Positions 26,363 to 49,674 of a stretch of 64,000 nucleotides of DNA are shown one piece after another (positions within the stretch are counted from its first letter, which is position 1; each line of letters opens with the position of its first letter). This DNA comes from Clostridia bacterium (lineage in GTDB: Bacteria > Bacillota > Clostridia > Peptostreptococcales > Anaerovoracaceae), in NCBI GenBank assembly GCA_030537495.1, contig JAUNMH010000006.1, positions 1-64,000 of the forward strand. The letters run 5' to 3'. The translations under genes were made by a program, and so were the position numbers. The notes beneath the pieces were generated by a model that searched no databases, was not told the DNA's origin, and worked only from the letters and a program-made list of their open reading frames with translations.

Positions 26363-28078
26363 ATGGCAAAATATAGACGATTGGGTGAGCTGCTTATAGC
26401 AGCGGGAACAATTACAGAGGAACAGCTAGAAAGAGCGCTTGAGCTGCAGAAAGGGACCAAGGAACGACTTGGGTCGGTTTTGATAACCAATGGAATCATT
26501 ACAGAGGGGCAGTTAATTGATGCGCTGACTATGCAGCTGGGAATCGATGCGATTGACCTGACGAAAGTGAATATACCGACTGAGCTGGCGAACGCTGTGC
26601 CGAAGAATATTGCGAAACAGTATCAAGTTGTGCCGGTTAAGGTTGTGGGGGATGAAATCTATCTGGCAATGAGCGACCCGCTGAATTTTTATGCCCTTGA
26701 AGAGGTTAGAAAGGCCGTACATAAGAGGGTAATCCCTGTCGTTGCAACAGAGTCGGCAGTAGATAGAGCCATTAGAGTGCTATACGGAAACGAAGGTGTA
26801 GCCAAGGCCATAGAGGAAATGAAGAGGGATTCGTCAACTATGAGTGCAGGCTCAGGAAGCCAGACGGATATGACCTTTGTGTCCAACCAGCTGGGCGAGG
26901 ATGTTTTGGACAGCGCACCGGCTATTAGACTGGTAAACTCATTAATTGAGAGAGCAATTACAGAGCGCGCCAGCGATATTCATTTAGAGCCACAGGAAAA
27001 TGACCTGAGGGTGAGAATGAGAATCGACGGAATGATGAGAGAAATCCTTAGAATTCCAGGGGAATTTAAGGCCACAGTTATCTCCAGATGGAAGGTAATG
27101 AGTGGAATGGATATTACGGAAAGAAGAGTCCCGCAGGATGGAAGATTCAGTGTAACCATGAAGGATAAAGAACTCGACCTTCGTGTGGCTACACTGCCTA
27201 CAATATATGGGGAAAAAATCGTAGCAAGACTGTTAGATAAGACAGGCGGCTGCGTTAAGAAAAATGAACTTGGGCTATCTGGTGATGACGAGGCAAAATT
27301 CAACAAGTTGCTTAAGCACCGCAATGGAGTTATCCTCATAGTAGGACCTACTGGAAGCGGTAAGTCAACTACAATGTATGCCATGATTAATGAACTTAAC
27401 ACGCCAGAGGTGAATCTGGTGACACTGGAAGACCCAGTGGAATACAACGTTGTAGGAATCAACCAGGTACAGATAAATGAGAAAACAGGTATGACCTTTG
27501 CGAATGGTTTAAGGTCAATTTTGAGACAGGATCCGGACATCATAGCAGTGGGAGAAATCCGTGATGGCGAAACCGCTGAAATTGCTATGAGAGCAGCAAT
27601 CACAGGCCATATGGTTTTGTCCACCATACATACAAACGATGCTCTAGGCACCATAGAGAGACTGGAAGACATTGGCGTCGAAAGCTATCTAATCGGTAGC
27701 GCCGTAAAAGGCGTAGTGTCCCAGAGACTTTTGAGAAAAATATGCCCGGACTGCAAGAAGGCATACACACCTGATGCAGAGGAGCTTAGAGACCTGGGAT
27801 TAGAGGGCGAAGAAGGACTGAAGCTATACAAAGGTGCAGGCTGCCCTAACTGCTTTAACACGGGATACAGAGGCAGAACCGCTGTCTTCGAAATGCTGGA
27901 AATTAACGGCAAGGTTCGCGATTTAGTATCCAAAAAAGCATCACGAGAAGTCATTGAAGAGAGTCTCACGGGTGAGGGTTCGTCGTTCGTCTCACTGAGG
28001 GACAACGCGATTCGCCTAGTCAAGGCGGGCAAAACCACCAGCGAAGAGGTTCTCCGTGTCGTGAATATGGAGGAATAA
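26363..28078 (+). CDS. pilB: Type IV pilus assembly ATPase PilB
   Basis: A 571-residue hexameric GspE-family ATPase that powers pilus extension at the inner face of the membrane. It carries the N-terminal MshE/T2SSE_N domain ('RLGELLIAAGTITEEQLERA'), Walker A 'GPTGSGKSTTMYAM' (near residue 330), the Asp box, Walker B 'DPDIIAVGEIRDGETAE', and the tetracysteine zinc site (CPDC ... CPNC, about residues 460-500). All motifs are intact and the length is usual. It is the first gene of the pilus cluster and is followed by pilT after 6 bases. No cyclic di-GMP-binding MshEN motif was checked in detail. Confidence 0.95.
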   Translation: MAKYRRLGELLIAAGTITEEQLERALELQKGTKERLGSVLITNGIITEGQLIDALTMQLGIDAIDLTKVNIPTELANAVPKNIAKQYQVVPVKVVGDEIYLAMSDPLNFYALEEVRKAVHKRVIPVVATESAVDRAIRVLYGNEGVAKAIEEMKRDSSTMSAGSGSQTDMTFVSNQLGEDVLDSAPAIRLVNSLIERAITERASDIHLEPQENDLRVRMRIDGMMREILRIPGEFKATVISRWKVMSGMDITERRVPQDGRFSVTMKDKELDLRVATLPTIYGEKIVARLLDKTGGCVKKNELGLSGDDEAKFNKLLKHRNGVILIVGPTGSGKSTTMYAMINELNTPEVNLVTLEDPVEYNVVGINQVQINEKTGMTFANGLRSILRQDPDIIAVGEIRDGETAEIAMRAAITGHMVLSTIHTNDALGTIERLEDIGVESYLIGSAVKGVVSQRLLRKICPDCKKAYTPDAEELRDLGLEGEEGLKLYKGAGCPNCFNTGYRGRTAVFEMLEINGKVRDLVSKKASREVIEESLTGEGSSFVSLRDNAIRLVKAGKTTSEEVLRVVNMEE

Positions 28079-28084
28079 CGAAAA

Positions 28085-29131
28085 ATGCTAAGTATAGTTG
28101 AAATGGTTGAGATGGCAAAGGAGGCAGGGGCCTCAGACATCCATCTCATTTGTGGAATACCACGTAAATATAGGTTGGCAGGTCGTCTGGAAAACATGTC
28201 AGAGGAAGTGCTTACAGAAGAGGATTGCGTGAAATACGCAAAGGAACTGGCGGGAAAGGAATATGATAATTTCTTAGAAGTTGGGGAACTGGATAGCGCT
28301 GACACTTTTGCAGACAACAGATGTCGTATACATATATTTAAGCAGCAGGGAATTCCAAGCATTGCCATTAGACTTCTAAGAGAAGAAATTCCGAAGCTTG
28401 AGAATCTAGGACTTCCGCCTGCAGTGCCTGAACTGGCTGATTTACATAAGGGAATTGTGCTGGTTACGGGAGAGACAGGAAGCGGAAAATCCACGACTCT
28501 GGCGGCTTTGATAGACAAAATAAACCACAGCAGGAAGGCGCACATTGTGACGCTGGAGGACCCGGTGGAGTACATATACAAGCCGGACCTTTGCGCTATT
28601 AATCAGCGTGAGGTGGGCAAGGATACGGAGTCTTTTGCGTCGGGGCTGAGAGCCAGCTTGCGTGAGGACCCGGACGTAATTCTCATCGGAGAAATGCGTG
28701 ACCGTGACACTATTGAAACGGCAATAATGGCGGCGGAAACCGGTCACTTGGTTTTCGGAACTTTGCATACCGGTAGCGCGGCTGACTCCATAGACCGTAT
28801 GGTTCAGGTTTTTCCGGAGGGGATGCAGAATCAGATTAGATTGCAGCTTTCCATGTGCCTGGAGGCGGTTATTACTCAGCAGCTGGTGCCTGACAGAGAC
28901 GGCGGTAGAGTTCTTGCTTGCGAGGTTATGAGGGTTACGGATGCTATTAGAAATCTCATTAGAACGGGCAAAACTCCGCAGATTTCCAATGCAATTCTGA
29001 CTAGCGCAGATATGGGCGGTCAGACTATGGATCAAGCTCTTGTAAAGCTAGTGGCTTCACGAAAAATTAGTAGATTCATGGCAACTCAATATGCTAGCGA
29101 TCCGGAATACATTAAGAAGAATGCTTTTTAG
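28085..29131 (+). CDS. pilT: Type IV pilus retraction ATPase PilT
   Basis: A 348-residue hexameric ATPase that depolymerises the pilus and so drives twitching motility and DNA uptake. Walker A is 'GETGSGKSTTLAAL' (near residue 129), Walker B 'DPDVILIGEMRDRDTIETA', and the PilT-specific 'AIRNLIRTGKTPQISNAI' is present near residue 290. It is co-transcribed with pilB. Having PilT means the pilus is retractile rather than a fixed secretion pseudopilus. Confidence 0.95.
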   Translation: MLSIVEMVEMAKEAGASDIHLICGIPRKYRLAGRLENMSEEVLTEEDCVKYAKELAGKEYDNFLEVGELDSADTFADNRCRIHIFKQQGIPSIAIRLLREEIPKLENLGLPPAVPELADLHKGIVLVTGETGSGKSTTLAALIDKINHSRKAHIVTLEDPVEYIYKPDLCAINQREVGKDTESFASGLRASLREDPDVILIGEMRDRDTIETAIMAAETGHLVFGTLHTGSAADSIDRMVQVFPEGMQNQIRLQLSMCLEAVITQQLVPDRDGGRVLACEVMRVTDAIRNLIRTGKTPQISNAILTSADMGGQTMDQALVKLVASRKISRFMATQYASDPEYIKKNAF

Positions 29132-29196
29132 CAGCGTGCATAATGATTGAGTTGACTTTTATGATATATTTCATATGGGGAAAGGGGTGAGGTACC

Positions 29197-30408
29197 CTGC
29201 AAACTTACAAATATACGGCGATTTCTCATGACGGTGAGAAGGTTTCCGGAATTATAGAGGCTTTTAACGAGATGGACGCGGCGGACAGAATCAAGCGTAA
29301 TTGTGACGTGGTTCTCAAGCTGGCGGAAGTTAAGGAGAAAGAAGGGCTTTTGCATAAGGACATAAGTAAGCCAAAGCTGAATCGCAAGGCTTTTACTATG
29401 ATGTGTAGTCAGTTTTCTATAATTCTAAATGCGGGAGTTCCTGTTGCCAGAACGGTTCAGCTTATTGCTGACAAGACTACAGACAAGCATCTTAAGAAGC
29501 TACTTGTTAGCGTGACTGAAGATGTAAAGGGCGGAAGAACTTTATCTGCCAGTTTTGCTGAACATGGCGAGGGGCTGTTGCCCGAGACTTTTGTAGAAAC
29601 CATTTCGGCCGGCGAGGAGTCGGGTAATGTGGACAAATCCTTCGAGAGCATGTACAGGCATTACGACAAACAGGTGAAAATGAGGGGCAAGGTTAAGCAG
29701 GCGCTGACCTATCCGGTTTTCGTAATTTTGATTGCGATTGTCGTTGTAATAGTGCTAATGGTCAAGGTTGTTCCTACATTTACCAATATCTTTGAGGAAT
29801 ACGGAGGCGAGCTTCCGCTGATTACGAGGATGCTAATTTCCATGTCCTACTTTTTCCAGAAAGCAGCATTGCCAATTTTGGTAATATTTATGCTTGCTTT
29901 TATCATCTTAAAATTGTATAGTAATACGGAGAGTGGTCGCCTAAAAATGGCACGTTTCCAGCTTAAATTGCCGGTTCTGGGTAATATATCCCGGCTTAAT
30001 GCGGCAAGCCAATTTGCCAACACTCTTACAATGATGCTTAGTGCAGGGCTTCCTTTAACTAAGGCGGTCCTCATTACGAGCCGTGTTCTGGACAATTACT
30101 ATATGAGCAAGGAAACCGGAAAGCTTACGGCTAGCCTCGAACAGGGCTTGACTCTGGGTGGCAGCATGCGCGAGGCCGACTACATGCCAGATATCCTAGT
30201 TGACATGATAGCCGTCGGCGAAGACACCGGTGAACTGGAAAAAACGCTCAAAACCATTTCCGCCTATTATGACGCGGAACTGGAAATGGCAATCCAAAAC
30301 GCCTTAAACAAGATGGATCCAACCATCCTGGTAATCCTGGCAGCCATTGCCGGATTCATCGTAGTTGCAGTCTACGTGGCGATGTTTAATATGTATAGTA
30401 TTATGTAG
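29197..30408 (+). CDS. pilC: Type IV pilus platform protein PilC (apparent CTG start)
   Basis: Inner-membrane platform protein of the GspF/PilC family on which PilB and PilT act; about 403 residues. Two T2SSF domains are visible, each with the 'SAGLPLTKAV' or 'NAGVPVARTV' type motif, and three to four membrane helices. The family N-terminus (Tyr-x-Tyr-x-Ala-x5-Gly) is encoded from 29203, well before the first ATG (29272). A stop at 29188 leaves CTG at 29197 as the only plausible initiation codon; GGTGA (29186-29190) is spaced 6 bases from it. Starting at 29272 would remove 25 conserved residues. Confidence 0.9.
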   Translation: MQTYKYTAISHDGEKVSGIIEAFNEMDAADRIKRNCDVVLKLAEVKEKEGLLHKDISKPKLNRKAFTMMCSQFSIILNAGVPVARTVQLIADKTTDKHLKKLLVSVTEDVKGGRTLSASFAEHGEGLLPETFVETISAGEESGNVDKSFESMYRHYDKQVKMRGKVKQALTYPVFVILIAIVVVIVLMVKVVPTFTNIFEEYGGELPLITRMLISMSYFFQKAALPILVIFMLAFIILKLYSNTESGRLKMARFQLKLPVLGNISRLNAASQFANTLTMMLSAGLPLTKAVLITSRVLDNYYMSKETGKLTASLEQGLTLGGSMREADYMPDILVDMIAVGEDTGELEKTLKTISAYYDAELEMAIQNALNKMDPTILVILAAIAGFIVVAVYVAMFNMYSIM

Positions 30409-30595: not shown

Positions 30596-30973
30596 ATGAA
30601 AATGACAAAGAAAAACAAAAAAGGTTTTACATTAGCAGAACTGCTAATCGTAGTGGCTATCATTGCAGTACTAGTAGCGATTGCAATTCCTATTTTCACT
30701 AGCCAGTTAGAGAAGTCAAGACAGGCAACAGATGCTGCTAATATCAGAGCTACATATGCGCAGGCTATGGTAAATTACATGGATGGTGGTGATAAGGCTG
30801 CTAGTGCTACATCTGATGCTGTAATGCAGAGCGATAAGTGGGACAAGATGCCAGATGGAACTAAGATTGCAAATAAAGATGTTAACGCTACTAACTTCAA
30901 GAAGACTAAGGGAAAGAAAATGATATGTAGCATTACGGCTACAGGAGAAGTGTCATTTACAGCTGAAACGTAA
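30596..30973 (+). CDS. Type IV major-type pilin 1
   Basis: A 125-residue prepilin. A short basic leader ends in Gly, then 'FTLAELLIVVAIIAVLVAIA' begins the mature protein with Phe1 and the conserved Glu5. The rest of the hydrophobic helix and 'PIFTSQLEKSRQATDAANIR' follow. The C-terminal domain is small (about 90 residues) with no Cys pair. PilD would cleave and N-methylate it. GAGGAG lies 6 bases from the start. The 187 bases between pilC and this gene hold no gene; they contain ATTTGGTT/AGCCAAAT, a weak hairpin near 30520-30558. Confidence 0.93.
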   Translation: MKMTKKNKKGFTLAELLIVVAIIAVLVAIAIPIFTSQLEKSRQATDAANIRATYAQAMVNYMDGGDKAASATSDAVMQSDKWDKMPDGTKIANKDVNATNFKKTKGKKMICSITATGEVSFTAET

Positions 30974-31001
30974 TTATTGAGTATCGAGAAAGAAATTATG
31001 T

Positions 31002-31397
31002 ATGAGAAAGAATAATAGAAAAGGCTTTACTTTAGCTGAATTATTGATTGTTGTAGCTATTATTGCAGTACTAGTTGCGATTGCAATTCCGATTTTCACT
31101 AGCCAGCTTGAAAAGTCAAGAGAAGCTACAGATGCTGCAAACATCAGAGCTGCATACGCACAGGCTTCAGTTGAGGTATTAGAAACCGAAAAGGCTGTTA
31201 CATATAAAGTTAACATGGTGCAAACTGATGCGGGATTCAAAAGTGAAGGCGTCAAAGATGCTAAAATTGGTGGTAAAACATTAAGTAGTGTTACAGATGC
31301 AAAAAACGACAAACCAGTTTATGTTACAGTGAACACAGAAGGAACAGCACCTACTATTGACACAACCCCGGTTACAGATGCAAAGAATTTTAACTAG
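31002..31397 (+). CDS. Type IV major-type pilin 2
   Basis: A 131-residue prepilin with almost the same first 60 residues as its upstream neighbour ('GFTLAELLIVVAIIAVLVAI', '...IPIFTSQLEKSREATDAANIR') but an unrelated C-terminal domain rich in Val, Lys and Thr. The shared N-terminus at the DNA level suggests duplication and exchange among pilin genes in this locus. Glu5 is present. Two terminators follow (31421, 31489), so transcription from pilB or a nearer promoter ends here. Confidence 0.93.
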   Translation: MRKNNRKGFTLAELLIVVAIIAVLVAIAIPIFTSQLEKSREATDAANIRAAYAQASVEVLETEKAVTYKVNMVQTDAGFKSEGVKDAKIGGKTLSSVTDAKNDKPVYVTVNTEGTAPTIDTTPVTDAKNFN

Positions 31398-36095: not shown

Positions 36096-36140
36096 TCTCA
36101 ATCTCTATAGTCAAAATAAAAATATGTGTGATTATTGCAA

Positions 36141-36162: not shown

Positions 36163-36198
36163 GGTTAGTTTTCGTATGACTTTTGCAATCTTGCGAGT

Positions 36199-37515: not shown

Positions 37516-37908
37516 ATGAGAAAAATGAAAAAGAACAGAAATGGTTTTACATTAGCTGAATTGCTGATTGTAGTTGCAATTATCGCAGTACTGGTTGCAA
37601 TTGCAATTCCAATTTTTACAGCCCAATTACATAAGACGCGGGTAGCTACAGACTGGGCGAATCTAAGAGCTTATTACGCAGAACTGCAGGTGGATTACAT
37701 GACCACGGAAAAACAGAACCCGAGTGTGCCGGTAGATTGGCATTCAAACCCTGCATATGATTGGACATCCATTACGCTATTGACTGGAGAGAAGATATCC
37801 ATGGAAACTGGGAAATGCGCAGTGAGCTTTAACAAAGATAGTGGATATAGTATAAGTTATGTCTGCGACAAAGGGCATACCGAATGTAACCTGAAACTGG
37901 GAAAATAA
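37516..37908 (+). CDS. Type IV pilin 4
   Basis: A 130-residue prepilin with the standard start 'GFTLAELLIVVAIIAVLVAI' (Glu5 present) and a short globular domain with two Cys near the C-terminus ('GKCAVSF', 'VCDKGHTEC' gives three in total), which could form a disulfide loop as in many pilins. The helix continues 'PIFTAQLHKTRVATDWANLR', more divergent than pilins 1 and 2. GAAAGGGG lies 8 bases from the start. Terminated at 37932, so expressed on its own. Confidence 0.92.
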   Translation: MRKMKKNRNGFTLAELLIVVAIIAVLVAIAIPIFTAQLHKTRVATDWANLRAYYAELQVDYMTTEKQNPSVPVDWHSNPAYDWTSITLLTGEKISMETGKCAVSFNKDSGYSISYVCDKGHTECNLKLGK

Positions 37909-38633: not shown

Positions 38634-39467
38634 GTGGCTTTGTCGATATATGATGATAAGTTTATAACTATATATTTCGTTCTGATTGCAGGTATTTTGG
38701 GGCAGGCTTTGGGGTCATTTCTTAACTGTGCGGCCTATAGAATTACGCAGGGAGAATCCTTTGTGAAGGGTCGAAGTAAGTGCACTGCGTGTGGACATGA
38801 GCTTGGAGCGATGGACCTTGTTCCGGTGCTGAGCTGGGTATTGCTGAAAGGGCGCTGCAGATACTGCGGTGAAAAGGTTTCAGCTAAGTACCCGATTACA
38901 GAATGTGTATTTGCCATACTGTGCATTATATGTTTGTTGAAGTTTGATTTGACAGTGATGTGCGGAAGAAATTTAGTGTTGCTGAGCTGCTTGTTTTGTT
39001 TGGCGCTAGTGGATTTGGACAGCTTCATTATTCCGGATGGATGTCTGATTGTGGCGGTCATTGCATGGATTGCAGGCGCGGCATTGGATTTCGAGGAATA
39101 TGGCGGGCTGCACGGAATTGGCATGAATGTACTGGCGGCGGTAATTATTGGGGGCGGCATGTTGGCCATATCCTTGATAATGGATAAGGTACTAGGGAGA
39201 GATAGCCTGGGCGGCGGCGACATTAAGCTTTTTGCGGTAATGGGCCTTTACCTGGGGTTGATTGGATCTATGTTTGCGCTGATTCTGGCGTGTATGCTGG
39301 GACTGCTGTTTGCAGCGGCGCGCAAGGGCAAGAGCGAGAGCGATACAAGTCAAGAAGACGACGGAAAACAAATACCTTTTGGGCCGGCCATCGCTGCAGC
39401 GACATGCATCATGTTGCTGTTTGGGGATCAGGCGGTTCAGTGGTATATGGGAATAATAGGAATCTAA
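38634..39467 (+). CDS. pilD: Prepilin peptidase / N-methyltransferase PilD
   Basis: A 277-residue membrane aspartic peptidase (family A24) that cleaves prepilin leaders after Gly and methylates the new N-terminus. The N-terminal cytoplasmic loop has the zinc-type CTACGHE ... CRYCGEK pairs. The two catalytic Asp are in 'LALVDLDSFIIPDG' (near residue 125) and 'GGGDIKLFAVMG' (near 195). It has about eight membrane helices. The GTG at 38634 lies only 3 bases from GGGGG, so TTG 38640 may be the true start. It should process all pilins of the locus. It begins the run pilD-pilM-pilN-pilO. Confidence 0.95.
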   Translation: MALSIYDDKFITIYFVLIAGILGQALGSFLNCAAYRITQGESFVKGRSKCTACGHELGAMDLVPVLSWVLLKGRCRYCGEKVSAKYPITECVFAILCIICLLKFDLTVMCGRNLVLLSCLFCLALVDLDSFIIPDGCLIVAVIAWIAGAALDFEEYGGLHGIGMNVLAAVIIGGGMLAISLIMDKVLGRDSLGGGDIKLFAVMGLYLGLIGSMFALILACMLGLLFAAARKGKSESDTSQEDDGKQIPFGPAIAAATCIMLLFGDQAVQWYMGIIGI

Positions 39468-39477
39468 GGAGAAAAAG

Positions 39478-40482
39478 ATGGCTAGAAATTTATTGGGAAT
39501 AGATATAGGCGGGAACTGCCTTAAGTTGGTTTTGACCAATGGGACGAAGATTTTGAATGCCGTGTGCGTGGAGATGCCGGATAATCTTGTGATTGATGGC
39601 AGAATTGTTTCGCCGGATGCTATGGCGGATTTGATTCGAGAGACCATGAAGGCAAATGGAATGAAGTGCAGAGACGCGGCGCTGTCAGTGTATGGGCCAA
39701 GTGTGTACGTGAGAAATATCACCATGCCGCAGATGAGCGTGGAGCAGCTTGAGTACAATTTACCTTATGAATTTAAGGACTACATTAATGACGAGCTGAA
39801 AAATTATGTTTTCGACTACGCTATGCAGTCCACGCTTGAGGAGCTGGAAATGGGCACAGGCGAGCGCGGAACCATGGACCTTTTCGCCGTTGCGGTTCCT
39901 AAGGAAATGCTGCAGGAGAGAAGCAATTTGTTGAGAAAGGCAGGACTGAAACTTGTGAAGGCCGCTCCTGATGTTAGTGGATATGCGTCATTGATTAGGC
40001 TTATGGACCCAGAGGGTGTGCGTAGAAAGAGAGAATACTGCGTTATTGACCTGGGGTACAACAGCATCGGAATGGACATGTACCGAGGCGATTGCCACAT
40101 GATTACGAGGGTGCTGGACTACGGGCTTCACGAAATGGAGAACATCGTTGCCGACATCTTCAACGTTGACATTCACCTGGCACATACATACTTCCTCAAG
40201 AATCACGAAGACTGTCAAAACCATGAGAGATGCAAGGATATGTACGATAGCATTGCCGTTGAGATGCTTCGTGCGGTGAACTTCTACTCCTTCAACCACC
40301 CTGACAGCGATTTATCCGATATCTGGATTTGCGGCGGAGGTGCGGAGATCCCACCACTTATGGACACTATCAAAACAAGATTAGAGATGGAAGTCCACAG
40401 TGCTGCGGAGTTGATTCCAGACGGAGATAAGCTTGGAAGAGCCAGCCTGTTTGTACAGGCAGTAGGCGTAACTCAGGATTGA
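39478..40482 (+). CDS. pilM: Type IV pilus assembly protein PilM
   Basis: A 334-residue actin-like cytoplasmic protein that forms the inner ring linking PilN/PilO to the motor. The phosphate-1 loop is 'LLGIDIGGNCLKLVLTNG' at the N-terminus and the adenosine loop is 'IWICGGGAEIPPLMDTI' near residue 285; 'YCVIDLGYNSIGMDMY' is the second phosphate loop. Length and motifs are usual. It starts 10 bases after pilD with AAGGAG. Confidence 0.92.
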   Translation: MARNLLGIDIGGNCLKLVLTNGTKILNAVCVEMPDNLVIDGRIVSPDAMADLIRETMKANGMKCRDAALSVYGPSVYVRNITMPQMSVEQLEYNLPYEFKDYINDELKNYVFDYAMQSTLEELEMGTGERGTMDLFAVAVPKEMLQERSNLLRKAGLKLVKAAPDVSGYASLIRLMDPEGVRRKREYCVIDLGYNSIGMDMYRGDCHMITRVLDYGLHEMENIVADIFNVDIHLAHTYFLKNHEDCQNHERCKDMYDSIAVEMLRAVNFYSFNHPDSDLSDIWICGGGAEIPPLMDTIKTRLEMEVHSAAELIPDGDKLGRASLFVQAVGVTQD

Positions 40483-40500
40483 ATTAGGAAGGTGAAGAAA

Positions 40501-41214
40501 TTGGCTAAGAATGTTTTTGGTAGAAATAAAAGTGAAAAACCTTCGGCTAAGAAGAATCAGGTGAATCCAAGCCATATGCCGTACAAGAGAAGCGTAAACC
40601 TGATGGCCGTTGGGCAGAAACCTATTGACAAGAAGGTTGCGCTACCTGCAATTATAGCCATTATAATTGTGGCGGCGCTAATTGGAAAGTTCGCTGTTGT
40701 TGATAGACTTATGGCGGCATCTGAGGCTCAGGGGCGCGTGGACTCTATGCAGGCGGAACTGGCTGAAGGATATGAGACAATTAAAAGCTATGGGGATGTG
40801 GCTGATAAATATGCACACTACACCTATGAGGATATGACCGCTGAGGAACTGTCACAGACAGATAGAATGAAAATACTGCAGCTTGTAGACGATGAAATTC
40901 TAAGTCACTTGAATATCAGTAGCTGGGCTATTAGCGAGAATCAGATTCAGGTTGTAGTTGTTGGTAGCACATTGCAGAGAATCAACGAGATTGTTCAGGA
41001 CGTTGAAAAACAGAGCATGGTTGACTACTGTAGCGTAGAGAAGGCAGCTACAGGTGAGCTGGCGGAAGTGCAGACTAGCGGCAGGGTTACAGCGCAGATA
41101 ACCATTTACTTTAAACCTGGCAGTGTTTCCGCAGGCAGTACTTCTGAAGGAAATACTGCAGAAAGCACTGCAGGCGCAGTCGCTGCGGACGAAAATTCAG
41201 AGGAAGGGGAGTAG
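40501..41214 (+). CDS. PilN-like type IV pilus assembly protein
   Basis: A bitopic membrane protein of about 237 residues: a basic N-terminal tail ('YKRSVNLMAVGQKPIDKKVA'), one membrane helix ('LPAIIAIIIVAALIGKFAVV', near residue 45), a coiled coil and a ferredoxin-like domain with a Ser/Glu/Ala-rich end. 'SVNLM' fits the NLL-type motif by which PilN binds PilM. Sequence similarity to classical PilN is weak; position between pilM and the PilO-like gene is the main support. TTG 40501 was chosen because AGGAAGG is 8 bases away; GTG 40492 is an alternative. Confidence 0.78.
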   Translation: MAKNVFGRNKSEKPSAKKNQVNPSHMPYKRSVNLMAVGQKPIDKKVALPAIIAIIIVAALIGKFAVVDRLMAASEAQGRVDSMQAELAEGYETIKSYGDVADKYAHYTYEDMTAEELSQTDRMKILQLVDDEILSHLNISSWAISENQIQVVVVGSTLQRINEIVQDVEKQSMVDYCSVEKAATGELAEVQTSGRVTAQITIYFKPGSVSAGSTSEGNTAESTAGAVAADENSEEGE

Positions 41215-41220
41215 TTGAAT

Positions 41221-41823
41221 ATGAAAGTTTTGAGTAGAGATTTCACAATGAGAGAAAAAATACTCCTTTTGGCTCTGGCGGTTTTGATAATTGGAATCGG
41301 ATATTATAAATTAATTGACGAGCCGGTGCGTAGTACTATTGCAAATGCTAAGGCGGAGGAAGCAAACCTGCAGATGGAGCTGACTGCTGTGCAGACAAAG
41401 GTTGCAGCACTTAAGAAGATGGAGTTTCAGCTTGAGAATATGACTTCGGCAGATAAGGATTTCATGCCAAGCTACAACAACCGAAAGACTGAAATCAAGC
41501 AGTTAAATGATATTTTGCAGAATGCGCAGAGCTATTCTGTTACTTTTGATAGCATTACCCGCGAGGGAAATCAGATTCGCAGAAACTTCACCTTACAGTT
41601 TACAACGAATAGATATACTTCAGCAGAAAGCATCTTGGATAGGCTGGATGACGGCCCATATCGTTGCAAACTCAACGAAGTTCTTTGCACCTCCGAGAGC
41701 GGAAATGTGCATAATGGAGAAATTTCAGTTAGTGCAGTGGCGACTTTCTATGAAACAGTTGTTGGGTGCACTGACGAGGCGGGACTTCCTGCGGAAACAT
41801 CCGAGGCGGGGAACGCTGAATAA
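41221..41823 (+). CDS. PilO-like type IV pilus assembly protein
   Basis: A bitopic protein of about 200 residues with one N-terminal membrane helix ('ILLLALAVLIIGIGYYKL'), a coiled coil ('NAKAEEANLQMELTAVQTKV') and a small alpha-beta domain. This is the usual build of PilO, which dimerises with PilN in the membrane. The gene directly follows the PilN-like gene. The name rests on architecture and order rather than on strong sequence signatures. Confidence 0.78.
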   Translation: MKVLSRDFTMREKILLLALAVLIIGIGYYKLIDEPVRSTIANAKAEEANLQMELTAVQTKVAALKKMEFQLENMTSADKDFMPSYNNRKTEIKQLNDILQNAQSYSVTFDSITREGNQIRRNFTLQFTTNRYTSAESILDRLDDGPYRCKLNEVLCTSESGNVHNGEISVSAVATFYETVVGCTDEAGLPAETSEAGNAE

Positions 41824-41859: not shown

Positions 41860-44800
41860 ATGACTAAACAATTGAGAAAAAAAGACAATTGTAATAAGAG
41901 AAACAAAGGGTTTTCACTGGTAGAAGTCCTTGCCACTATTGCGATTCTATGCATATTGATGGCGGTGGGGGTTGTGGCCTATACATCATGGCAGAAAACG
42001 GCGGAGTTTAACTACAATAACGAAAACGCAAAGACCATTTACACGGCCCTTCAGAGCGAGCTATCAGCACAGAAATCCGGAAACAGCCTTGGCCCAGTGG
42101 AAAAAAACCTCAAGAATTGGAGTGCTTCCGATGACGAAAATACCAAGGCTTATTGTGGTGCTTTGGACGACGACCTTCTATCAAAACTCACTCTTGCTGA
42201 CATAACTTTGGAAATCATCAATGATAAAGGTGAAAGTGAGACCCTCAAACAGGTTGCGAAAACGGGCACGACCTACGAGGAAATCTACAAGGGTCTGGGC
42301 AGCAGCGTGAAGCGCAAGGTTTATTACCTTAAGGCGACGGCTGCGGATTGGGCCAAGTATCTGGACGACGATGCTAACAACGATCAGCCTCAGGCCAAGC
42401 TACTTTACGACTTGCTTTCACAGTGCTTCAACGAAAAGGATAGAGCATTTTTGGATGGCTCCGTATGCATTGAATTCGATGCGTCAGAGGGCCTGGTGTA
42501 CTCTGTTTTCTACTGCAAGGGCGACAAGTCCAACTTGAACTATAACGTGGGAGCCGAATACAATATGATTAACAGAACCAAGGCGGCCCGCAAGGACAAC
42601 GGCCTGGTTGGCTACTACGGCGTGCGCAATCTTGCCATGGTCGGCGATTTGCTTCTCGGCAGCCCGAAGCTTGAAAATGTAAAGCTAAACAACGAAGAGA
42701 CGCTGAATCTCTCATTTAAGACAAGCATGCCCGCAGCTACATCCAAGCTTACTTACGAGGTTTTCCTTTACGACTCTAAGGACACAGAGGGGAAAAAACC
42801 TCTTGTTGGAATTCGCATGAATAAGCTGGAAAAGGGCACTTCCCTGAAGAACAAGGTTTATGATCTGAAGAGTACGAAGAAGGCGGAAGCCACTGCGGCT
42901 GTGGGAGCTTTGATCGCGGACTGTGAAGTGACGAAATACTATGAGGATGGCGGAAAATCCAAGGCAGGCGAGCAGAGATACATGACCTTCCCTGCGTGGA
43001 TTGATGCAGATGGTAAGGTTACTTTGGTTCTCGATGCCGTTGATTTCAATGTGGCATCAGAGAGCAAGCAGGCAGCGTATAAATCGTATTTGAATTCAAA
43101 GAATGCAGCGTCTGTGGCGGGAGCTGTGCCTGCTAAGGGTAAGTTTGTGTCAGGCCTATATGATACTTTTAGCATTTACCGTCTTGGAATCGAGGATCAC
43201 GACAATATTTACTGCACAGTGCAGGGTATAGGTGGCAATTACAGGCCGACTAAGGTTGAAAAATCAAATGATGCAAATAGAGCTTTTGCAAAATCTACTA
43301 CTGCTGAGCATAAGTTTGAGCTTGGGCTTTCCAGACACTTGTACAATGTGAGATTTGAGGAAACTGCGGCAAGCCGTAATCCTTCGGCTAATTACGAGTA
43401 TGCTTTAACCGGCGGATTTAGCTGGAAGAAAGCCACTGCAATTACTACGGATACAGAAAATACGGCAGCAGGAGACACAAGTCTGGGTAATGTCTATGCA
43501 ATTGATCCTGACCTGTTTAACGGAATAAACTCCGCGGAGGCTGTGATAAAGAGCGGCGAAACCACAGGACTGTCAGCTTCCTTTGGAACAATTGGACAGA
43601 AAATCTGCGTAGGCAATTATGAGAACAGTCAGGATAAGATTTTGGCAGGAAAAGATGCTGCCTTTCCTTCGCTGACAGGGCTGAGGGCGAAGTCCGTGGT
43701 TACGTCAGATGTATCATCCGGAAAGGGCTACAGAATTTCAAACCTTGTAATCGACAAGGATGCTAACGATAAGTGGATCAAGGCTTCGGGCACTTCCGGA
43801 ACCACCTCAACATCCACAGCCAAAACAGAATCGACAGGATTATTCCTTGAAAATAGCGGAAAGATTTCAAAGGTAATCCTTGAAAATATTAAGGTAAAAG
43901 GTGAGGAGAAGACAGGCGCATTTTGCGGTATAGACAAGGGGACCTTAAACAATTTATCTGTTTATTCCCGCGATGAGGCTGATAAGATTAAATCCGACGC
44001 AAGTACCGTGGAAGGTACTACAGAGGTTGGAGGAATTCTAGGAGCTTGGGAGAATAAAAAGAGCTTTGAAGCTTTACAAACCCTAAACAATGAGGCGACT
44101 GTAATCGGTAGTAAGCTTGTAGGGGGAATTCTAGGCCGATTGACTCTTAAGGAAAATGAAAAGAAGAGTCTAACTATTACTGAATGTGAAAATAAAGGTG
44201 TAGTTTTAGGCAAGAATGCCGAATCTTCGTTTATAGGTGGAATTGCAGGAATGATTGGAAAACCAGGGAACGACAAGAATCATCTTGGAGATTATGGAGT
44301 TACAATTACAAATTGTAAGAGCGAACCTATATATGTTAATGACGAACAAAAGAAAAACAGAAACGGCTACTGCGTAGGTGGAATCGTTGGATTCTGCTAT
44401 AACGGACAGGTAAAAAGCAGTTGCAAAGTCAAGAAGAATAGTCTGATTACAGGTGGAAACTACGTAGGTGGAATCATTGGAATGTTCACTGGAATTGTTG
44501 ATATGCAGACCGTCGCAACAGAAGGTACAGGTAACAGCGAGGCGAATGTTGCAGGCAAAAACTATGTTGGTGGTGTTGCTGGATGCTCGAGTGCACTAAA
44601 AGTAGAAGGTAAAACTCTATCACAGTGGATTTTGGACAATGGTGATAACTGGTATACCAAGCTAACAGGTAAAATGCTTGAAATTGACGAGTCAAATCCT
44701 ACTGCATCTATAAAAGACTGGCTTGCTAATGGGGAAATTACTGGCGATTCAGATGGAAAATATACCGGTGGTGTTATTGGATACAATTGCGGAGAATTAG

Positions 44801-47800
44801 CTTACTCTGGAATTGAGGCATTAGAAGGCAAAGTCACTGGTGGAGATTATGTTGGTGGCTTAACGGGATATAATGCTGGCACTGTAATGACAGTAAATTC
44901 TGTATCTGTTAAACGCAAGATACTTGGAACGAACTACATAGGTGGCTTGACAGGCTATAACGGAGGTGTTCTAGGCGACGGAGATAATCACAACATTAAG
45001 TCTAATGAGACTGTTGACGGAAAAAGCTTTGTTGGCGGAATCGTAGGATATAATGATACCGATGCGGTTATCCACGGTAATTGCGACCATTCTGACGAAC
45101 AGAAATATAGAGTCAAAGGCTCTGGAAGTTTTGTTGGCGGGTTAGTTGGCGTAAATTGCTCTGTTAACACAGCGCAACACCTTGAAAGCAGCAATGCAGT
45201 TACGGTTACGGGCAAATACTGCGTCGGCGGTCTCATGGGTGGAAATGTCTTACGCAGCAACGGCTCAGTAGAAGTAAAGAACAAAACCATCAAAGCCAAC
45301 GTCACCGCAGGAGGAGGCGTGGCCGGCGGATATATCGGATATAATAAGATGTTAGGAAGTACATCTGTTAGCAAAGCAGAGCTGAGAGCTGGACTTACGA
45401 AGCTCGCAGATAGCCTTAGCAATAAGGGTGATTATGCAGGAGTTATGGAACTTCTAGCTTCTGAAGTTGTGGCAGATGGCAACCTAACGAAGGGCAAAAT
45501 GGTCATATCGTCAACTAGCGATGAAGCAGGAAAGATAAAGGGTGGAGTGTTCTCAGGCGGATTTATCGGATATAATGCTGACAATACTAAGTTGACTATG
45601 GGCAAACTTACCAATAAGGCAGAATGGGTTGAAGTTACTAGCAAGATTAAGGGAACGCAACTATATAATGTGCCAGAATCAGTGGTGACTAATTCCGGTT
45701 ATGGTTTTGTAGGCGGAATCATTGGATACGTCGGCGAAAATACAACACTGAAGACATGCAAAAACGAGGGTACTGTCAAGGGTGGAACCTACACTGGTGG
45801 CCTTTGCGAAGTCAATAAGGGAACCATTGAAGATTGCACTGTATATGCCCCTATTACCGATGCAAAGACTGAAAGAGTTGGTGGCCTTTGTGGTGTTAAT
45901 TTTGGAACTGTAAAGAATCCGAAATTTGGTGGTAATAAGGTCGTTGGCAGCAGTGGAACCGGAGGCATAGCTTCCGAAAATTACGGAACAATCAATGTAA
46001 CTAACAAAGATTTTGGAACTGTATCTGTTGAAGGTGGAACAGGCTCTGATGTTAAGAACATTGGCGGAATCGTAGCATATAATATTAAGTTGACGGATGC
46101 CAAATACGCAGGAAAGATTAGTTTTACGGATAATAGCACAGCGCTAGAAAAGGTTAAGGTTGATGTAACTGCAAGTGATGCTAGCAATGTTGGTGGAATC
46201 GTTGGTCAGGATCGTGGTGGCTCTGTCAATACATCTGATGAAAAAGGTAAATTTATTAAGACTACAGTCACTGGAACTGTAATTGGAAAAAACTCTGTAG
46301 GCGGAGCAATTGGAACTACTGGAAATACAGCAGCAGGCGTGACTGGATCAGTAATTACTGGTTTTGACGCTGACGTGGGGCTGACTGTAACCGCAAGCAA
46401 AGATAATGCTGGCGGAGTTGTCGGAACTATGGCTTCGGAGAGCGTTATTGTAACTGAATGTGTGAACAATGGTAAAGTTGAGAGCAATCAGTACGCAGGA
46501 GGAATCGTTGGAAATGCAAGCGCTGGCACGGGCACAATTACGAACTGTGAAAATAAGGGAAAGCTTAGCATTGCTAAATACCTAGGCGGAATTGCCGGAG
46601 GCGTTTCGTCAGATAATATGACCGTTAGTGACTGCGTAAATAATGGCAAAACCGGCAATAATGAAACAGAATATGCCGGTGGTATAATCGGTAAAATCTC
46701 GGCACAGAAGGCTGTTGTAACAAAGTGCGTGAACCATGAATCAGTTGAGGGCAAGCGATATGCCGGCGGAATTGTCGGTGGCGTAGCGCATGAGGGTGAA
46801 GTTGTTGCGACTATTTCTGAATCCAAGAATTTCGGGGAAATCAAAACCACCGGAGAGGGTGCAGGCGGAATTGTTGGCGGTAACGGCGCTCATTACTTGT
46901 TTATCACAGATAGCTTCAACAAGAACGCTGTAAAATCAGAGGGCAACGCAGTAGCTACAGGCCTTAATTGCAACGCAACTGTTGGAGGAATTCTAGGCAA
47001 GAGTAACGGACAGGAAAACATTTTCAGATGCAGAAATTACGGTGAATCAACTTGTGGAGCAGATGCAGGTGACAAAAACAACGCTTCTGGAATTGCAAGC
47101 AATTTCAATGACATGGTTGAATGTTTCGATTTCAGACCAAGCAGTGTGAGCAAGTTGACAACCGGAGATGATGAGCCGAGGTATTCATATTTTTATAGTA
47201 AGGCTATGGAGTCGATTTTTGAAGGTGAAGATAAATCGTCTGAGAATTTTTGGCTCAGACAATATAGAAGAGGATGGGCTCTTGCTGCAAGTGTAAAAAC
47301 TGCTTTCAAATCAAGAGTTGACGAGCTAGGTAGGAAGGGCTTACCTGTTGGAATCCATAAATATACATTCCCGGATGACTATGTTTTTTCAAGCTATAAG
47401 ATATGGGACAATATATACAACCCTGTATTTGAAAAAACTATACCGGGAGTGGCAATAGAGGATTTAAAGAAATTTGATTTGGATCAAAGCAAGGAAGTAA
47501 CAGAAGGCTTTAATATTAGCAATGAGTTGTATAACGTCATGGAAAGTTATAAATCCGGACTCGGATATGTAGAAGATTACTTTAAGCGTAGCCAACCTGA
47601 AAAGGAAACTAAGAAGGTCAGTGGTATTGGCGTATCTCAGAACGGGAAAAAACTATCGGCAACTTGGAAAGAAACCAAAGACGCTTATGGTTACAAGGTT
47701 ATGGTAGCCTTTGTTGGGGGTACATCTGGAGCGCAGATTTTACACACAAGCTATCTAGTACCTTCAGAGTCTTGGTCATGCGAGATTCCAGATGAATGGT

Positions 47801-47964
47801 ACAACTATGGCTCTAAAGGCACCGTTGAATTACACGTATTTGTTAGAGCGGTATACGCAAGTGAATTGCCAAGAAAAAACCAACTGTTTGATTTGACAAA
47901 ATGGGAAAGCGAAAATCCAGTGAACAATGGCGACTTCATAAATAAACTAATAAAGATTAAATAG
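41860..47964 (+). CDS. Giant prepilin with GLUG repeats, probable pilus-tip adhesin
   Basis: A 2034-residue protein with a class III prepilin leader: basic residues, then 'KGFSLVEVLATIAILCILMA', with Glu at +5. It is therefore predicted to be cut by PilD and built into the pilus, although it is over ten times the size of normal pilins. Residues about 240-720 are a mixed region. About 723-1712 hold some 28 repeats of the form GG-I/V/L-x-G ('VGGIVGYN', 'AGGIVGNA'), each 25-60 residues apart, matching the GLUG motif of surface adhesins (beta-helix-like). A fibronectin III-like domain lies near 1895-2000. It heads the minor pilin genes. Confidence 0.9.
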   Translation: MTKQLRKKDNCNKRNKGFSLVEVLATIAILCILMAVGVVAYTSWQKTAEFNYNNENAKTIYTALQSELSAQKSGNSLGPVEKNLKNWSASDDENTKAYCGALDDDLLSKLTLADITLEIINDKGESETLKQVAKTGTTYEEIYKGLGSSVKRKVYYLKATAADWAKYLDDDANNDQPQAKLLYDLLSQCFNEKDRAFLDGSVCIEFDASEGLVYSVFYCKGDKSNLNYNVGAEYNMINRTKAARKDNGLVGYYGVRNLAMVGDLLLGSPKLENVKLNNEETLNLSFKTSMPAATSKLTYEVFLYDSKDTEGKKPLVGIRMNKLEKGTSLKNKVYDLKSTKKAEATAAVGALIADCEVTKYYEDGGKSKAGEQRYMTFPAWIDADGKVTLVLDAVDFNVASESKQAAYKSYLNSKNAASVAGAVPAKGKFVSGLYDTFSIYRLGIEDHDNIYCTVQGIGGNYRPTKVEKSNDANRAFAKSTTAEHKFELGLSRHLYNVRFEETAASRNPSANYEYALTGGFSWKKATAITTDTENTAAGDTSLGNVYAIDPDLFNGINSAEAVIKSGETTGLSASFGTIGQKICVGNYENSQDKILAGKDAAFPSLTGLRAKSVVTSDVSSGKGYRISNLVIDKDANDKWIKASGTSGTTSTSTAKTESTGLFLENSGKISKVILENIKVKGEEKTGAFCGIDKGTLNNLSVYSRDEADKIKSDASTVEGTTEVGGILGAWENKKSFEALQTLNNEATVIGSKLVGGILGRLTLKENEKKSLTITECENKGVVLGKNAESSFIGGIAGMIGKPGNDKNHLGDYGVTITNCKSEPIYVNDEQKKNRNGYCVGGIVGFCYNGQVKSSCKVKKNSLITGGNYVGGIIGMFTGIVDMQTVATEGTGNSEANVAGKNYVGGVAGCSSALKVEGKTLSQWILDNGDNWYTKLTGKMLEIDESNPTASIKDWLANGEITGDSDGKYTGGVIGYNCGELAYSGIEALEGKVTGGDYVGGLTGYNAGTVMTVNSVSVKRKILGTNYIGGLTGYNGGVLGDGDNHNIKSNETVDGKSFVGGIVGYNDTDAVIHGNCDHSDEQKYRVKGSGSFVGGLVGVNCSVNTAQHLESSNAVTVTGKYCVGGLMGGNVLRSNGSVEVKNKTIKANVTAGGGVAGGYIGYNKMLGSTSVSKAELRAGLTKLADSLSNKGDYAGVMELLASEVVADGNLTKGKMVISSTSDEAGKIKGGVFSGGFIGYNADNTKLTMGKLTNKAEWVEVTSKIKGTQLYNVPESVVTNSGYGFVGGIIGYVGENTTLKTCKNEGTVKGGTYTGGLCEVNKGTIEDCTVYAPITDAKTERVGGLCGVNFGTVKNPKFGGNKVVGSSGTGGIASENYGTINVTNKDFGTVSVEGGTGSDVKNIGGIVAYNIKLTDAKYAGKISFTDNSTALEKVKVDVTASDASNVGGIVGQDRGGSVNTSDEKGKFIKTTVTGTVIGKNSVGGAIGTTGNTAAGVTGSVITGFDADVGLTVTASKDNAGGVVGTMASESVIVTECVNNGKVESNQYAGGIVGNASAGTGTITNCENKGKLSIAKYLGGIAGGVSSDNMTVSDCVNNGKTGNNETEYAGGIIGKISAQKAVVTKCVNHESVEGKRYAGGIVGGVAHEGEVVATISESKNFGEIKTTGEGAGGIVGGNGAHYLFITDSFNKNAVKSEGNAVATGLNCNATVGGILGKSNGQENIFRCRNYGESTCGADAGDKNNASGIASNFNDMVECFDFRPSSVSKLTTGDDEPRYSYFYSKAMESIFEGEDKSSENFWLRQYRRGWALAASVKTAFKSRVDELGRKGLPVGIHKYTFPDDYVFSSYKIWDNIYNPVFEKTIPGVAIEDLKKFDLDQSKEVTEGFNISNELYNVMESYKSGLGYVEDYFKRSQPEKETKKVSGIGVSQNGKKLSATWKETKDAYGYKVMVAFVGGTSGAQILHTSYLVPSESWSCEIPDEWYNYGSKGTVELHVFVRAVYASELPRKNQLFDLTKWESENPVNNGDFINKLIKIK

Positions 47965-47987: not shown

Positions 47988-48554
47988 ATGAGAAAACTGA
48001 ATAGTAAAAAAGGCAGTTCTATGGTAATTGCGCTAGTTACGATATTGATTGTTACTCTGGCCTGCCTCTCTCTTTTCATGACCATGTCTGCTGTGACAAG
48101 GAAGGCTGGTAGCAGTGTGCAGATGGAGCAGGCTAGGATTGCTGCGGCATCTGCTAGCCAGGTGATTCAAAAGCAAATTGAAGAGGGTGTGACTGTAACG
48201 AAGGACAGCTCTGGAAGCACTGGAGGCGAGACTTATACGGCTACAGTTAACAATCAAATTTCGCAATACATATATGATGAACTTGGGAATGAGACGAAAA
48301 CCTTCAACTTGGATGCTCCTATTGAATTTCCGAAGAGTTACTCTAAGTGTGATTTGAAAATGACCATATGGAAAGGATCCGAAGATGGAGCTAGCGCTGA
48401 AGGCGGTAGCAGTGACAATACTCTTTATGTAAAGGTTACTGCAAAGGTTAGTGGCGTAGGCGGAGCAGAAAGCTGTAGCCTGACTTCGAGTTTTGATAGT
48501 TGGGAACTTGAAAATGGCATGAGCTGGTGGAAATACTCTGGGGAGATGAGATAG
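47988..48554 (+). CDS. Minor pilin / PilX-like protein
   Basis: A 188-residue protein with 'KKGSSMVIALVTILIVTLAC' at the N-terminus, the PilX-type start in which the residue after Gly is Ser and no Glu5 is present (GspK/PilX proteins share this). The rest is a Ser/Gly-rich globular domain. It follows the giant prepilin by 23 bases with AAGAAGGTGGG upstream. Together with the two next genes it should form the priming or tip complex that carries the large adhesin. Confidence 0.8.
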   Translation: MRKLNSKKGSSMVIALVTILIVTLACLSLFMTMSAVTRKAGSSVQMEQARIAAASASQVIQKQIEEGVTVTKDSSGSTGGETYTATVNNQISQYIYDELGNETKTFNLDAPIEFPKSYSKCDLKMTIWKGSEDGASAEGGSSDNTLYVKVTAKVSGVGGAESCSLTSSFDSWELENGMSWWKYSGEMR

Positions 48555-48556
48555 GC

Positions 48557-48970
48557 ATGAGATTATTTGGTAAAAATGCTATGGGGAAAACAGTCGTTAG
48601 CAAAACGGATATAAGGGAGAGCTCAAAGAGGAAGCTGCGCAGTTCTAAGGGGACGACGCTGGCGGAGACTTTGTGTGCTTTTATCATCGTTGTGCTGGCG
48701 CTGACGATGCTGGGCAATGTAATTGTTCAGGCGTGTAATACGGTGAAAGTTAGCGAAAATATGGAAAAAGAGAACCAGGCTGTTTTGGAAAACTACTGGA
48801 AGGGCACTGTAACAGGTGTTGGAGCGGCTGCTGATACCAAGGGTGCCCTGAAATTTACGGATGCAGATGGCAAGGATATTTCAATGAATGTGACGATAAA
48901 TGAGCACGAATATAAGAATGCCGATGGAAGCTATACTAGTGCCATTTATGATTTTAGCGAGTATAAGTAG
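48557..48970 (+). CDS. Minor pilin (PilV/GspI-like)
   Basis: About 137 residues. The leader is unusually long and basic (about 33 residues), ending 'KLRSSKG', then 'TTLAETLCAFIIVVLALTML' with Glu5 conserved. The globular domain is small. The ATG at 48557 is chosen since GGAGATGAG precedes it; an upstream in-frame ATG overlaps the previous gene by 28 bases. Part of the three-gene minor pilin set. Confidence 0.8.
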   Translation: MRLFGKNAMGKTVVSKTDIRESSKRKLRSSKGTTLAETLCAFIIVVLALTMLGNVIVQACNTVKVSENMEKENQAVLENYWKGTVTGVGAAADTKGALKFTDADGKDISMNVTINEHEYKNADGSYTSAIYDFSEYK

Positions 48971-48993: not shown

Positions 48994-49674
48994 ATGAGGA
49001 TTCTTGGGAGGATGCTAGGCGTTAAGACCCTGGGAAAACTGAAGAACAAGAAGGGTGTTTCTCTTGCGGAGATGCTGGTTTGTGTCATACTTGTCAGCCT
49101 GATTTCGATGATGACGTGCACAGGGATTTTGACCTCTTTTCGCGTAGGTGGGCAGGTGAGCAAGGTGGCTTCGGTGCAGTCGGTTAGCGATACCATTATG
49201 AACCGCATTACGGGGGAACTGTCTGACGCGTATGCGGGTGACGTGTATCTGGCAGCTGGAGAGTCGCCGGTGGTGGCTTTCTATGGGAAATCCGGAGCGC
49301 CTATGTATATTACAGCATATAATAAACCCGATGTGGATTGGAATTCCAGGGCCGGAGATGCAGGCAAGGGATATTTGATGGTTTACTATTGTGGCGCCTT
49401 GCAGACAGATGGCTCAGTTAGTCCGTCGATTTGGACTATAGATAAGGGCGCATATATGGGATTTGCTATTGATTCCCTGACTTTTTCCGATGCAGGTGAG
49501 AAGGAAAATCATCCTCTGGTAAAAGTGAAGCTTAAGATGAAGGCTGTAAATGGAGATAAGACTTATAGTGCGGAAAAGATTATCTGCTGCTATAACCTGG
49601 AGGCCAGCAATATGAGGGTTGTAGATGATGTGGACAAGATTCTTAAGGTGGAGAATTTCTCGGATATTTTGTGA
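48994..49674 (+). CDS. Minor pilin (PilW/GspJ-like)
   Basis: A 226-residue prepilin. The leader ends 'KNKKG' and the mature start is 'VSLAEMLVCVILVSLISMMT' with Glu5. The globular domain has two Cys near residue 200 ('KIICCYN'). It closes the pilus cluster. The intergenic stretch to gpmI (413 bases) contains only the inverted-repeat element B. Confidence 0.82.
   Translation: MRILGRMLGVKTLGKLKNKKGVSLAEMLVCVILVSLISMMTCTGILTSFRVGGQVSKVASVQSVSDTIMNRITGELSDAYAGDVYLAAGESPVVAFYGKSGAPMYITAYNKPDVDWNSRAGDAGKGYLMVYYCGALQTDGSVSPSIWTIDKGAYMGFAIDSLTFSDAGEKENHPLVKVKLKMKAVNGDKTYSAEKIICCYNLEASNMRVVDDVDKILKVENFSDIL

What the first reader, a model, noticed from the sequence alone, without database searches (positions are those of the whole stretch)
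41860..47964. 2034-residue prepilin with about 28 GLUG-type repeats
A class III prepilin leader with Glu5 is followed by a roughly 1000-residue repeat region and a fibronectin-like end. It lies between pilO and three minor pilins. Normal pilins are 100-230 residues. The natural reading is a giant tip adhesin carried on a minor-pilin complex, comparable in principle to PilY1 but built into a pilin. Repeat units are similar enough for copy-number change.
Basis: partly seen in the sequence, partly recalled or inferred. Interest (0 to 1): 0.65.

Follow-up and report, generated by a model that had tools for sequence, protein, structure and literature searches.

The report
Giant modular pilin with beta-solenoid arm
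A gut-type Gram-positive bacterium carries, inside its type IV pilus gene cluster, a pilin subunit about ten times the usual size whose extra mass is a long coiled beta-solenoid, probably held out at the pilus tip to bind something, and related giant pilins sit at the same place in many Bacillota although standard domain searches mostly miss them.

Summary
ORF 41860-47964 encodes 2034 aa with an unambiguous class III prepilin leader (NKRNKG|FSLVE, Glu5), exactly 28 strict GLUG-type motifs (shuffles: mean 1.6, maximum 6) and a place between pilO and three small pilins, the first of which lacks Glu5 like GspK. Two details fail. No fibronectin domain is detectable at the C-terminus. The repeats are too diverged for copy-number slippage (no tandem array; best unit-to-unit DNA identity 55%).

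New here: the repeat profile matches the solved beta-helix of IgA1 proteases (E=2e-8), and the repeat model matches 3n6z (E=1.6e-4). A conserved ~500-residue N-terminal scaffold occurs in giant prepilins of 600 to more than 2880 aa that follow pilM-pilN-pilO directly in 13 of 41 named loci (Lachnospiraceae, Emergencia, Baileyella, Solobacterium-type). The genome has no secretin and no sortase.

Best reading: a modular minor pilin (known concept: PilB and PilC of Streptococcus sanguinis) that joins a K-I-J-like tip complex and displays a ~200 kDa solenoid. Tip position and adhesion are inferred. I rate it a new variant of a known kind: an undescribed, widespread family of extreme size that domain-library surveys would largely miss.

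The parts
41860..47964 (+). Giant prepilin gene, 2034 aa; mature protein about 213.5 kDa
   Evidence: in-frame stop upstream
41860..41910 (+). Class III leader peptide, 17 residues ending in Gly (MTKQLRKKDNCNKRNKG), cleavage expected before Phe, Glu at +5
41911..42720 (+). Pilin module: alpha-1 helix (model residues 20-73, pLDDT about 75-82) and conserved head, about residues 18-287, aligned with other giant prepilins
42721..43359 (+). Conserved spacer region (about residues 288-500), strands, weak Ig/FN3-like structural matches only
43360..44001 (+). Presumed N-cap and first turns of the solenoid (about residues 501-714), aligned with relatives at RHLxNL and GLF/ISNL motifs
   Evidence: inference
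44002..47073 (+). GLUG-type repeat array, 28 strict motifs (residues 724-1713), predicted beta-solenoid, residues about 715-1738
47074..47961 (+). C-terminal region (residues 1739-2034), no relative found in 61 genomes, no domain match, fold not predicted
47988..48554 (+). Small pilin without Glu5 (KKG|SSMVI), GspK-like (K)
48527..48970 (+). Small pilin (SKG|TTLAE), GspI/PilV-like by length and sequence (I); true start may lie further in
   Evidence: assignment to I is inference
48994..49674 (+). Small pilin (KKG|VSLAE), GspJ/PilW-like (J)
   Evidence: assignment to J is inference
38634..41823 (+). pilD, pilM, pilN, pilO-like genes directly upstream
26363..30408 (+). pilB, pilT, pilC of the same cluster
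30596..31397 (+). Two major-pilin-size prepilins (125 and 131 aa)
37516..37908 (+). Further prepilin, 130 aa

Best explanation
The protein is a modular type IV minor pilin of extreme size. PilD cleaves the class III leader; Glu5 and the alpha-1 helix let the pilin module join the three small pilins encoded next to it (K-like without Glu5, I-like, J-like) as the fourth subunit of the tip-initiating complex, roughly the place of H. Because its mass cannot be packed inside the shaft, it sits at the tip and carries outward a ~1000-residue GLUG beta-solenoid plus a lineage-specific C-terminal region that binds a surface, a host glycan or protein, or another cell; PilT retraction would then pull on that attachment. 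Shown by sequence: leader, Glu5, repeats, synteny, conserved scaffold, homology of the repeats to a solved beta-helix. Inferred: cleavage, tip position, partner contacts, adhesion.
For: Leader and Glu5 with curated matches. PilB, PilT, PilC, PilD, PilM, PilN and PilO-like genes all in the same cluster and strand. A prepilin of more than 600 aa follows pilM-pilN-pilO directly in 12 of 41 named loci, plus one cut by a contig end; they share a ~500-residue N-terminal scaffold with 17 invariant columns including Gly-1 and Glu5. K-like pilins without Glu5 are encoded in the cluster of most relatives whose minor pilins are in view, 14 of 14 aligned lacking Glu5. The repeat profile hits the IgA1 protease beta-helix, E=2e-8, a region described as a beta-helix in PMC9637739; the model of the repeats, pLDDT 66-83 over residues ~1526-1665, matches 3n6z at E=1.6e-4, probability 1.00. 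No sortase and no secretin in a 99.9% complete genome, no LPxTG and no second membrane segment, so wall display by another route is not apparent. Precedent: S. sanguinis PilB/PilC grafted modules at the tip (PMC8179133, PMC9934059).
Against: No experiment. The pilin head itself is modelled only moderately (mean pLDDT 52.7; Foldseek gave no pilin match). Assignment of the small pilins to I and J rests on resemblance. The C-terminal region, the likely binding end, has no detectable relative or domain, so ligand binding is a guess. Many Bacillota with the same pilMNO genes lack a giant prepilin there, so it is not essential to the machine in general.
Confidence: 0.7

Rival explanations
1. The giant prepilin is cleaved and stays in the membrane as a surface protein, with the pilin N-terminus serving only as a membrane anchor; it is never built into filaments.
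For: Its mass (213.5 kDa) may hinder extrusion; the genome has no sortase, so a pilin-type anchor could replace wall anchoring. The same organism has two other GLUG giants of 2891 and 3291 aa without a prepilin leader and with signal-peptide-like N-termini, so GLUG surface proteins need not be pili.
Against: Glu5, needed for filament docking rather than for anchoring, is invariant in the aligned giants. The gene is tied to pilO and to K-I-J-like pilins in many lineages. The pilin head (residues ~200-287) is conserved, which an anchor alone would not require.
Confidence: 0.15
2. It is a pilus subunit, but the solenoid is a spacer or cap for priming and holding the tip, or a carrier for DNA or another secreted protein, rather than an adhesin. 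(This shares the tip-pilin part of the best explanation and differs in function only.)
For: In Thermus ComZ a beta-solenoid inserted in a pilin is thought to bind DNA, and CofB carries a separate secreted adhesin (discussed in PMC8179133). GLUG beta-helices in IgA1 proteases act as a gate, not as a binder. A DpnII system lies within the cluster, and such systems can coexist with transformation (own knowledge).
Against: The size range (615 to more than 2880 aa) and the divergent distal parts against a conserved scaffold fit a diversifying ligand-binding surface better than a structural cap.
Confidence: 0.25
3. Chance or annotation artefact: the leader is a fortuitous fusion of a pilin start with a GLUG protein, or an assembly chimera.
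For: GLUG proteins occur elsewhere in the genome.
Against: The same leader-scaffold-GLUG architecture recurs at the same position in independent genomes including the isolates Emergencia timonensis and Baileyella intestinalis, and in other families.
Confidence: 0.01

Closest known systems
Modular type IV pilins PilB and PilC of Streptococcus sanguinis (PMC8179133, PMC9934059)
   Same: Class III leader and pilin module with a grafted bulky module; monoderm host; encoded with PilM, PilN, PilO; small partner pilin without Glu5 (PilA there, K-like here); tip display proposed.
   Different: Processed PilB is 50.5 kDa with a vWA module; PilC has a lectin module; here about 213 kDa with a repeat beta-solenoid. 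Partners here resemble K, I and J rather than PilA alone. The survey in that paper required an InterPro match for the extra domain, and its most extreme listed case was an 860-residue protein with 12 motif copies.
ComZ of Thermus thermophilus (large beta-solenoid in a pilin, discussed in PMC8179133)
   Same: A beta-solenoid carried by a pilin.
   Different: There the solenoid is inserted into the pilin sheet and linked to DNA uptake; here it follows the pilin module and appears much longer (comparison from the paper's description, not tested here).
PilC/PilY1 tip adhesins of diderm type IVa pili
   Same: Very large effector at the tip on a minor-pilin complex (as proposed here).
   Different: PilY1 is not a pilin and has a C-terminal beta-propeller; none is found here. 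PMC9934059 states it is absent from monoderms.
GLUG beta-helix of M26 IgA1 proteases (6xja, 6xjb, 7uvl) and Bacteroides ovatus 3n6z
   Same: Repeat profile and predicted fold.
   Different: No HExxH metalloprotease motif in this protein; no protease domain found.
Tad/Kil pili with exchangeable tip complexes in Myxococcus (PMC12075869)
   Same: Minor pilins with large extra domains forming a tip complex that decides what is recognised.
   Different: Tad (type IVc) system with different pilins and partners.

Membership tests
Type IV (pre)pilin | Class III signal peptide: short basic leader ending in Gly, hydrophobic alpha-1, Glu5 | tested here: met
   PF07963 28.2 bits (cut-off 21.2), TIGR02532 25.4 (cut-off 16.3)
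Type IV (pre)pilin | Pilin fold (long alpha-1 packed on an antiparallel sheet) | tested here: inconclusive
   Helix 20-73 and strands 200-220 modelled at pLDDT about 75-80, rest poor; Foldseek gave no pilin match
Type IV (pre)pilin | Encoded with a prepilin peptidase and assembly machinery | tested here: met
   PilB, PilT, PilC, PilD, PilM, PilN, PilO-like genes in the same cluster
Type IV (pre)pilin | Cleaved by PilD and polymerised in the filament | not testable with these tools
   needs experiment
Modular pilin | Pilin module fused to a module not specific to pilus biology | tested here: met
   Repeat profile matches the IgA1 protease beta-helix, E=2e-8; Foldseek 3n6z E=1.6e-4
Modular pilin | Grafted module has a direct role in a pilus function such as adhesion | not testable with these tools
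   needs experiment
GLUG repeat (PF07581) | Match above the curated cut-off of 20.5 bits | tested here: inconclusive
   hmmscan of the protein 16.2 bits, below cut-off; genome search gives one stretch 23.2 bits, above it
PilC/PilY1 | C-terminal beta-propeller domain; not a pilin | tested here: not met
   No such Pfam match at E<=0.1, and the protein has a pilin leader
M26 IgA1 protease | HExxH metalloprotease motif | tested here: not met
   No HExxH in the protein
Sortase-anchored surface protein | LPxTG-type signal, hydrophobic C-terminal tail, sortase in the genome | tested here: not met

The most novel reading that the evidence does not exclude
A widespread, undescribed family of giant prepilins (about 600 to more than 2880 residues) is a common tip effector of type IVa pili in many gut-type Bacillota: one conserved scaffold subunit takes the fourth place in a K-I-J tip complex and carries interchangeable beta-solenoids that decide what the pilus grips, so that these monoderms do with one giant pilin what diderms do with PilY1.
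Probability: 0.45. Interest if true: 0.7.

Novelty: new variant of a known kind. Interest (0 to 1): 0.52.

Why it matters
Which pilus component binds in clostridial type IV pili was described as unknown in PMC6916266. A conserved, locus-defined family of giant tip candidates would give a direct target in common gut genera. It also suggests that modular pilins reach 200-300 kDa, and that surveys relying on Pfam or InterPro matches miss them: most relatives here give only the N-methylation motif. How a pilus machine handles a ~200 kDa subunit through peptidoglycan becomes testable.

Tried and rejected
Copy-number slippage of repeats: tested and not supported. Cross-strain copy-number comparison: not possible, one genome per species is held and, of 12 other genomes sampled from the genus, only one (Emergencia timonensis) has the locus. 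Fibronectin end: no Pfam match; model below pLDDT 50; weak Ig/FN3 structural matches came instead from the N-terminal model and none had E<=0.001. Relatives of the C-terminal region: none in 61 genomes or in all ORFs fetched. Genome scan with the whole protein: no relative; the scan with a PilM alignment worked. Direct PDB sequence search with the repeat region alone: nothing; the profile of 11 segments found the IgA1 protease beta-helix. Literature: no paper found pairs GLUG with type IV pilins in the sense meant here, and searches on Lachnospiraceae pilins and on giant prepilins gave nothing relevant. A protease reading from the IgA1 protease match was rejected (no HExxH). Promoter and terminator scans were at background.

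Full report
What is there. The open reading frame 41860-47964 (+) encodes 2034 residues. Its ATG is fixed by an in-frame TAA six bases upstream. The N-terminus, MTKQLRKKDNCNKRNKG|FSLVEVLATIAILCILMAVGVVAY, meets the curated cut-offs of both the Pfam N-methylation motif (28.2 bits against 21.2) and NCBIfam TIGR02532 (25.4 against 16.3). The only stretch hydrophobic enough for a membrane helix begins there, and there is no LPxTG signal. The mature mass is about 213.5 kDa.

Repeats. Exactly 28 GG[ILVAFY]x[GE] motifs lie between residues 724 and 1713; shuffling the region 2000 times gives a mean of 1.6 and a maximum of 6. Glycine spacing peaks near 30-32 residues. Conventional domain detection is weak: one GLUG match of 16.2 bits, under the 20.5 cut-off, with hmmscan, and 23.2 bits for a stretch at the same place in the genome search. 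The units are old and diverged at DNA level: Tandem Repeats Finder reports none, the best ungapped 87-base identity is 0.55, and the longest exact repeats are under 18 bases. The claim that copy number can change easily is therefore not supported.

Fold of the repeats. A profile of 11 GLUG segments from this protein and its relatives matches solved IgA1 proteases at E=2e-8 (6xjb, 6xja, 7jgj), within the region that PMC9637739 describes as a beta-helix. The AlphaFold2 model of residues 1436-2034 is poor overall (mean pLDDT 47.9) but regular and fairly confident, 66-83, over residues ~1526-1665, with strands recurring every 29 residues. Foldseek's only match at E<=0.001 is 3n6z, a putative Bacteroides ovatus IgA1 protease (E=1.6e-4, probability 1.00), followed by the same IgA1 protease chains. 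Sequence profile and model thus agree on a beta-solenoid. There is no HExxH motif, so this is not a protease of that family.

N-terminal part. The alpha-1 helix (20-73) and part of the head are modelled at pLDDT 75-82, but the 720-residue model as a whole is weak (mean 52.7) and Foldseek returns no pilin. The pilin assignment therefore rests on sequence and synteny.

C-terminal part. Residues 1739-2034 have no relative in 61 genomes or among all ORFs fetched, no Pfam match and no confident model. The 'fibronectin-like end' is not confirmed.

Neighbourhood. pilB, pilT, pilC, prepilin genes, pilD, pilM, pilN and a pilO-like gene lie upstream on the same strand. Downstream come three small pilins: K-like (188 aa, position 5 is Ile, weak GspK match), I-like (147 aa) and J-like (226 aa). 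The gaps before and after the giant gene are 36 and 23 bases. All 14 K-like pilins aligned from this and related clusters lack Glu5, the property attributed to the capping subunit of tip complexes (PMC9934059, PMC10191384). The genome (1.92 Mb, 99.9% complete) has no secretin and no sortase. Seven N-methylation motifs are found in it, six of them in this cluster.

Relatives. One genome assigned to the same genus as the window has a contig of the same length and coordinates as Emergencia timonensis SN18 (2,288,933 bases), so the window comes from a relative of Emergencia. A PilM-based scan of named genomes gave 41 loci. In 12 of them the next gene after pilM-pilN-pilO is a prepilin of more than 600 aa, and a 13th is cut by the contig end: Lachnospiraceae (at least 2842, at least 2880 and 2673 aa), Emergencia timonensis (1405), Baileyella intestinalis (1768), a Solobacterium genome (2174), Erysipelotrichia, Candidatus Scybalomonas (855) and unnamed Clostridia. 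Four of these records are the same genomes as unnamed handles used earlier and are not counted twice. Further cases turned up in other genomes without named records: 2568 aa (L030), 846 (L073), 933 (L070). An alignment of 13 N-terminal scaffolds, the window's included, has 17 invariant columns, among them Gly-1 and Glu5. In a class-wide sample of 196 genomes, five besides the window's own have a match in an open frame of more than 600 aa (2224, 1893, 2780, 676, 636). The family is widespread but patchy. Nine full or near-full relatives scanned against Pfam give the N-methylation motif and at most a marginal GLUG match, so a survey that needs a recognised second domain would miss most of them.

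Interpretation. The modular pilin concept is established: PilB and PilC of S. sanguinis carry adhesive modules, and more than 1200 such proteins in 264 architectures were counted, the most extreme cited being 860 residues with 12 motif copies (PMC8179133). The present protein works, most likely, on the same principle at a much larger scale: a pilin module that assembles with K-, I- and J-like pilins, a conserved middle region, and a long solenoid ending in a unique tip. The best match of its repeat region among everything fetched is a GLUG giant without a prepilin leader in its own genome (28% over 265 aa), which fits solenoids being exchanged between surface proteins. PilY1 is an analogue of role, not a relative.

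What remains inferred: PilD cleavage, incorporation, tip position, contacts with K, I and J, and what it binds. A membrane-retained surface protein is the main structural rival and is testable by mass spectrometry of purified pili.

Verdict. It is a new variant of a known kind: a conserved family of giant modular pilins hardly visible to domain libraries.

Noticed in passing
window 32730-36095: A DpnII-type restriction-modification set (N6/N4 methylase, D12 methylase, second methylase, DpnII endonuclease) sits inside the pilus cluster between two copies of a pilin gene region: 613 bp at 31938-32548 and 36134-36746 are 89% identical.
   Followed up: partly
window 36199-36876 and 32002-32424, minus strand: A 225-aa prepilin on the opposite strand has Lys instead of Glu at position 5, and its partial copy lacks the leader: possibly silent or decaying pilin copies that could feed recombination.
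   Followed up: no
L027:1423-10098 and L028:2357-12232 (own genome, contigs C9 and C36): Two further GLUG giants of 2891 and 3291 aa, with signal-peptide-like N-termini and no prepilin leader, in a genome without a recognisable sortase.
   Followed up: partly
L085:10864-14382 minus: A 1172-aa K-like prepilin start without Glu5 (AGSVLIYALVALL) carries 7 GLUG-type motifs: the same module grafted on the capping subunit itself.
   Followed up: no
L106:12279-21026 and L118:14031-20900: In a goat jejunum Bacillota genome the gene after pilM-pilN-pilO is a giant (at least 2915 aa) with a signal peptide instead of a prepilin leader, and a similar giant lies near the same genes in L118: candidates for a non-pilin tip protein in a monoderm.
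   Followed up: no
genome G124 (same family): 57 N-methylation motifs in one 2.0 Mb genome, mostly 200-280 aa prepilins scattered over many contigs.
   Followed up: no
L071:2796-9263: A 2155-aa prepilin without GLUG motifs and without pilus genes recognised nearby.
   Followed up: no
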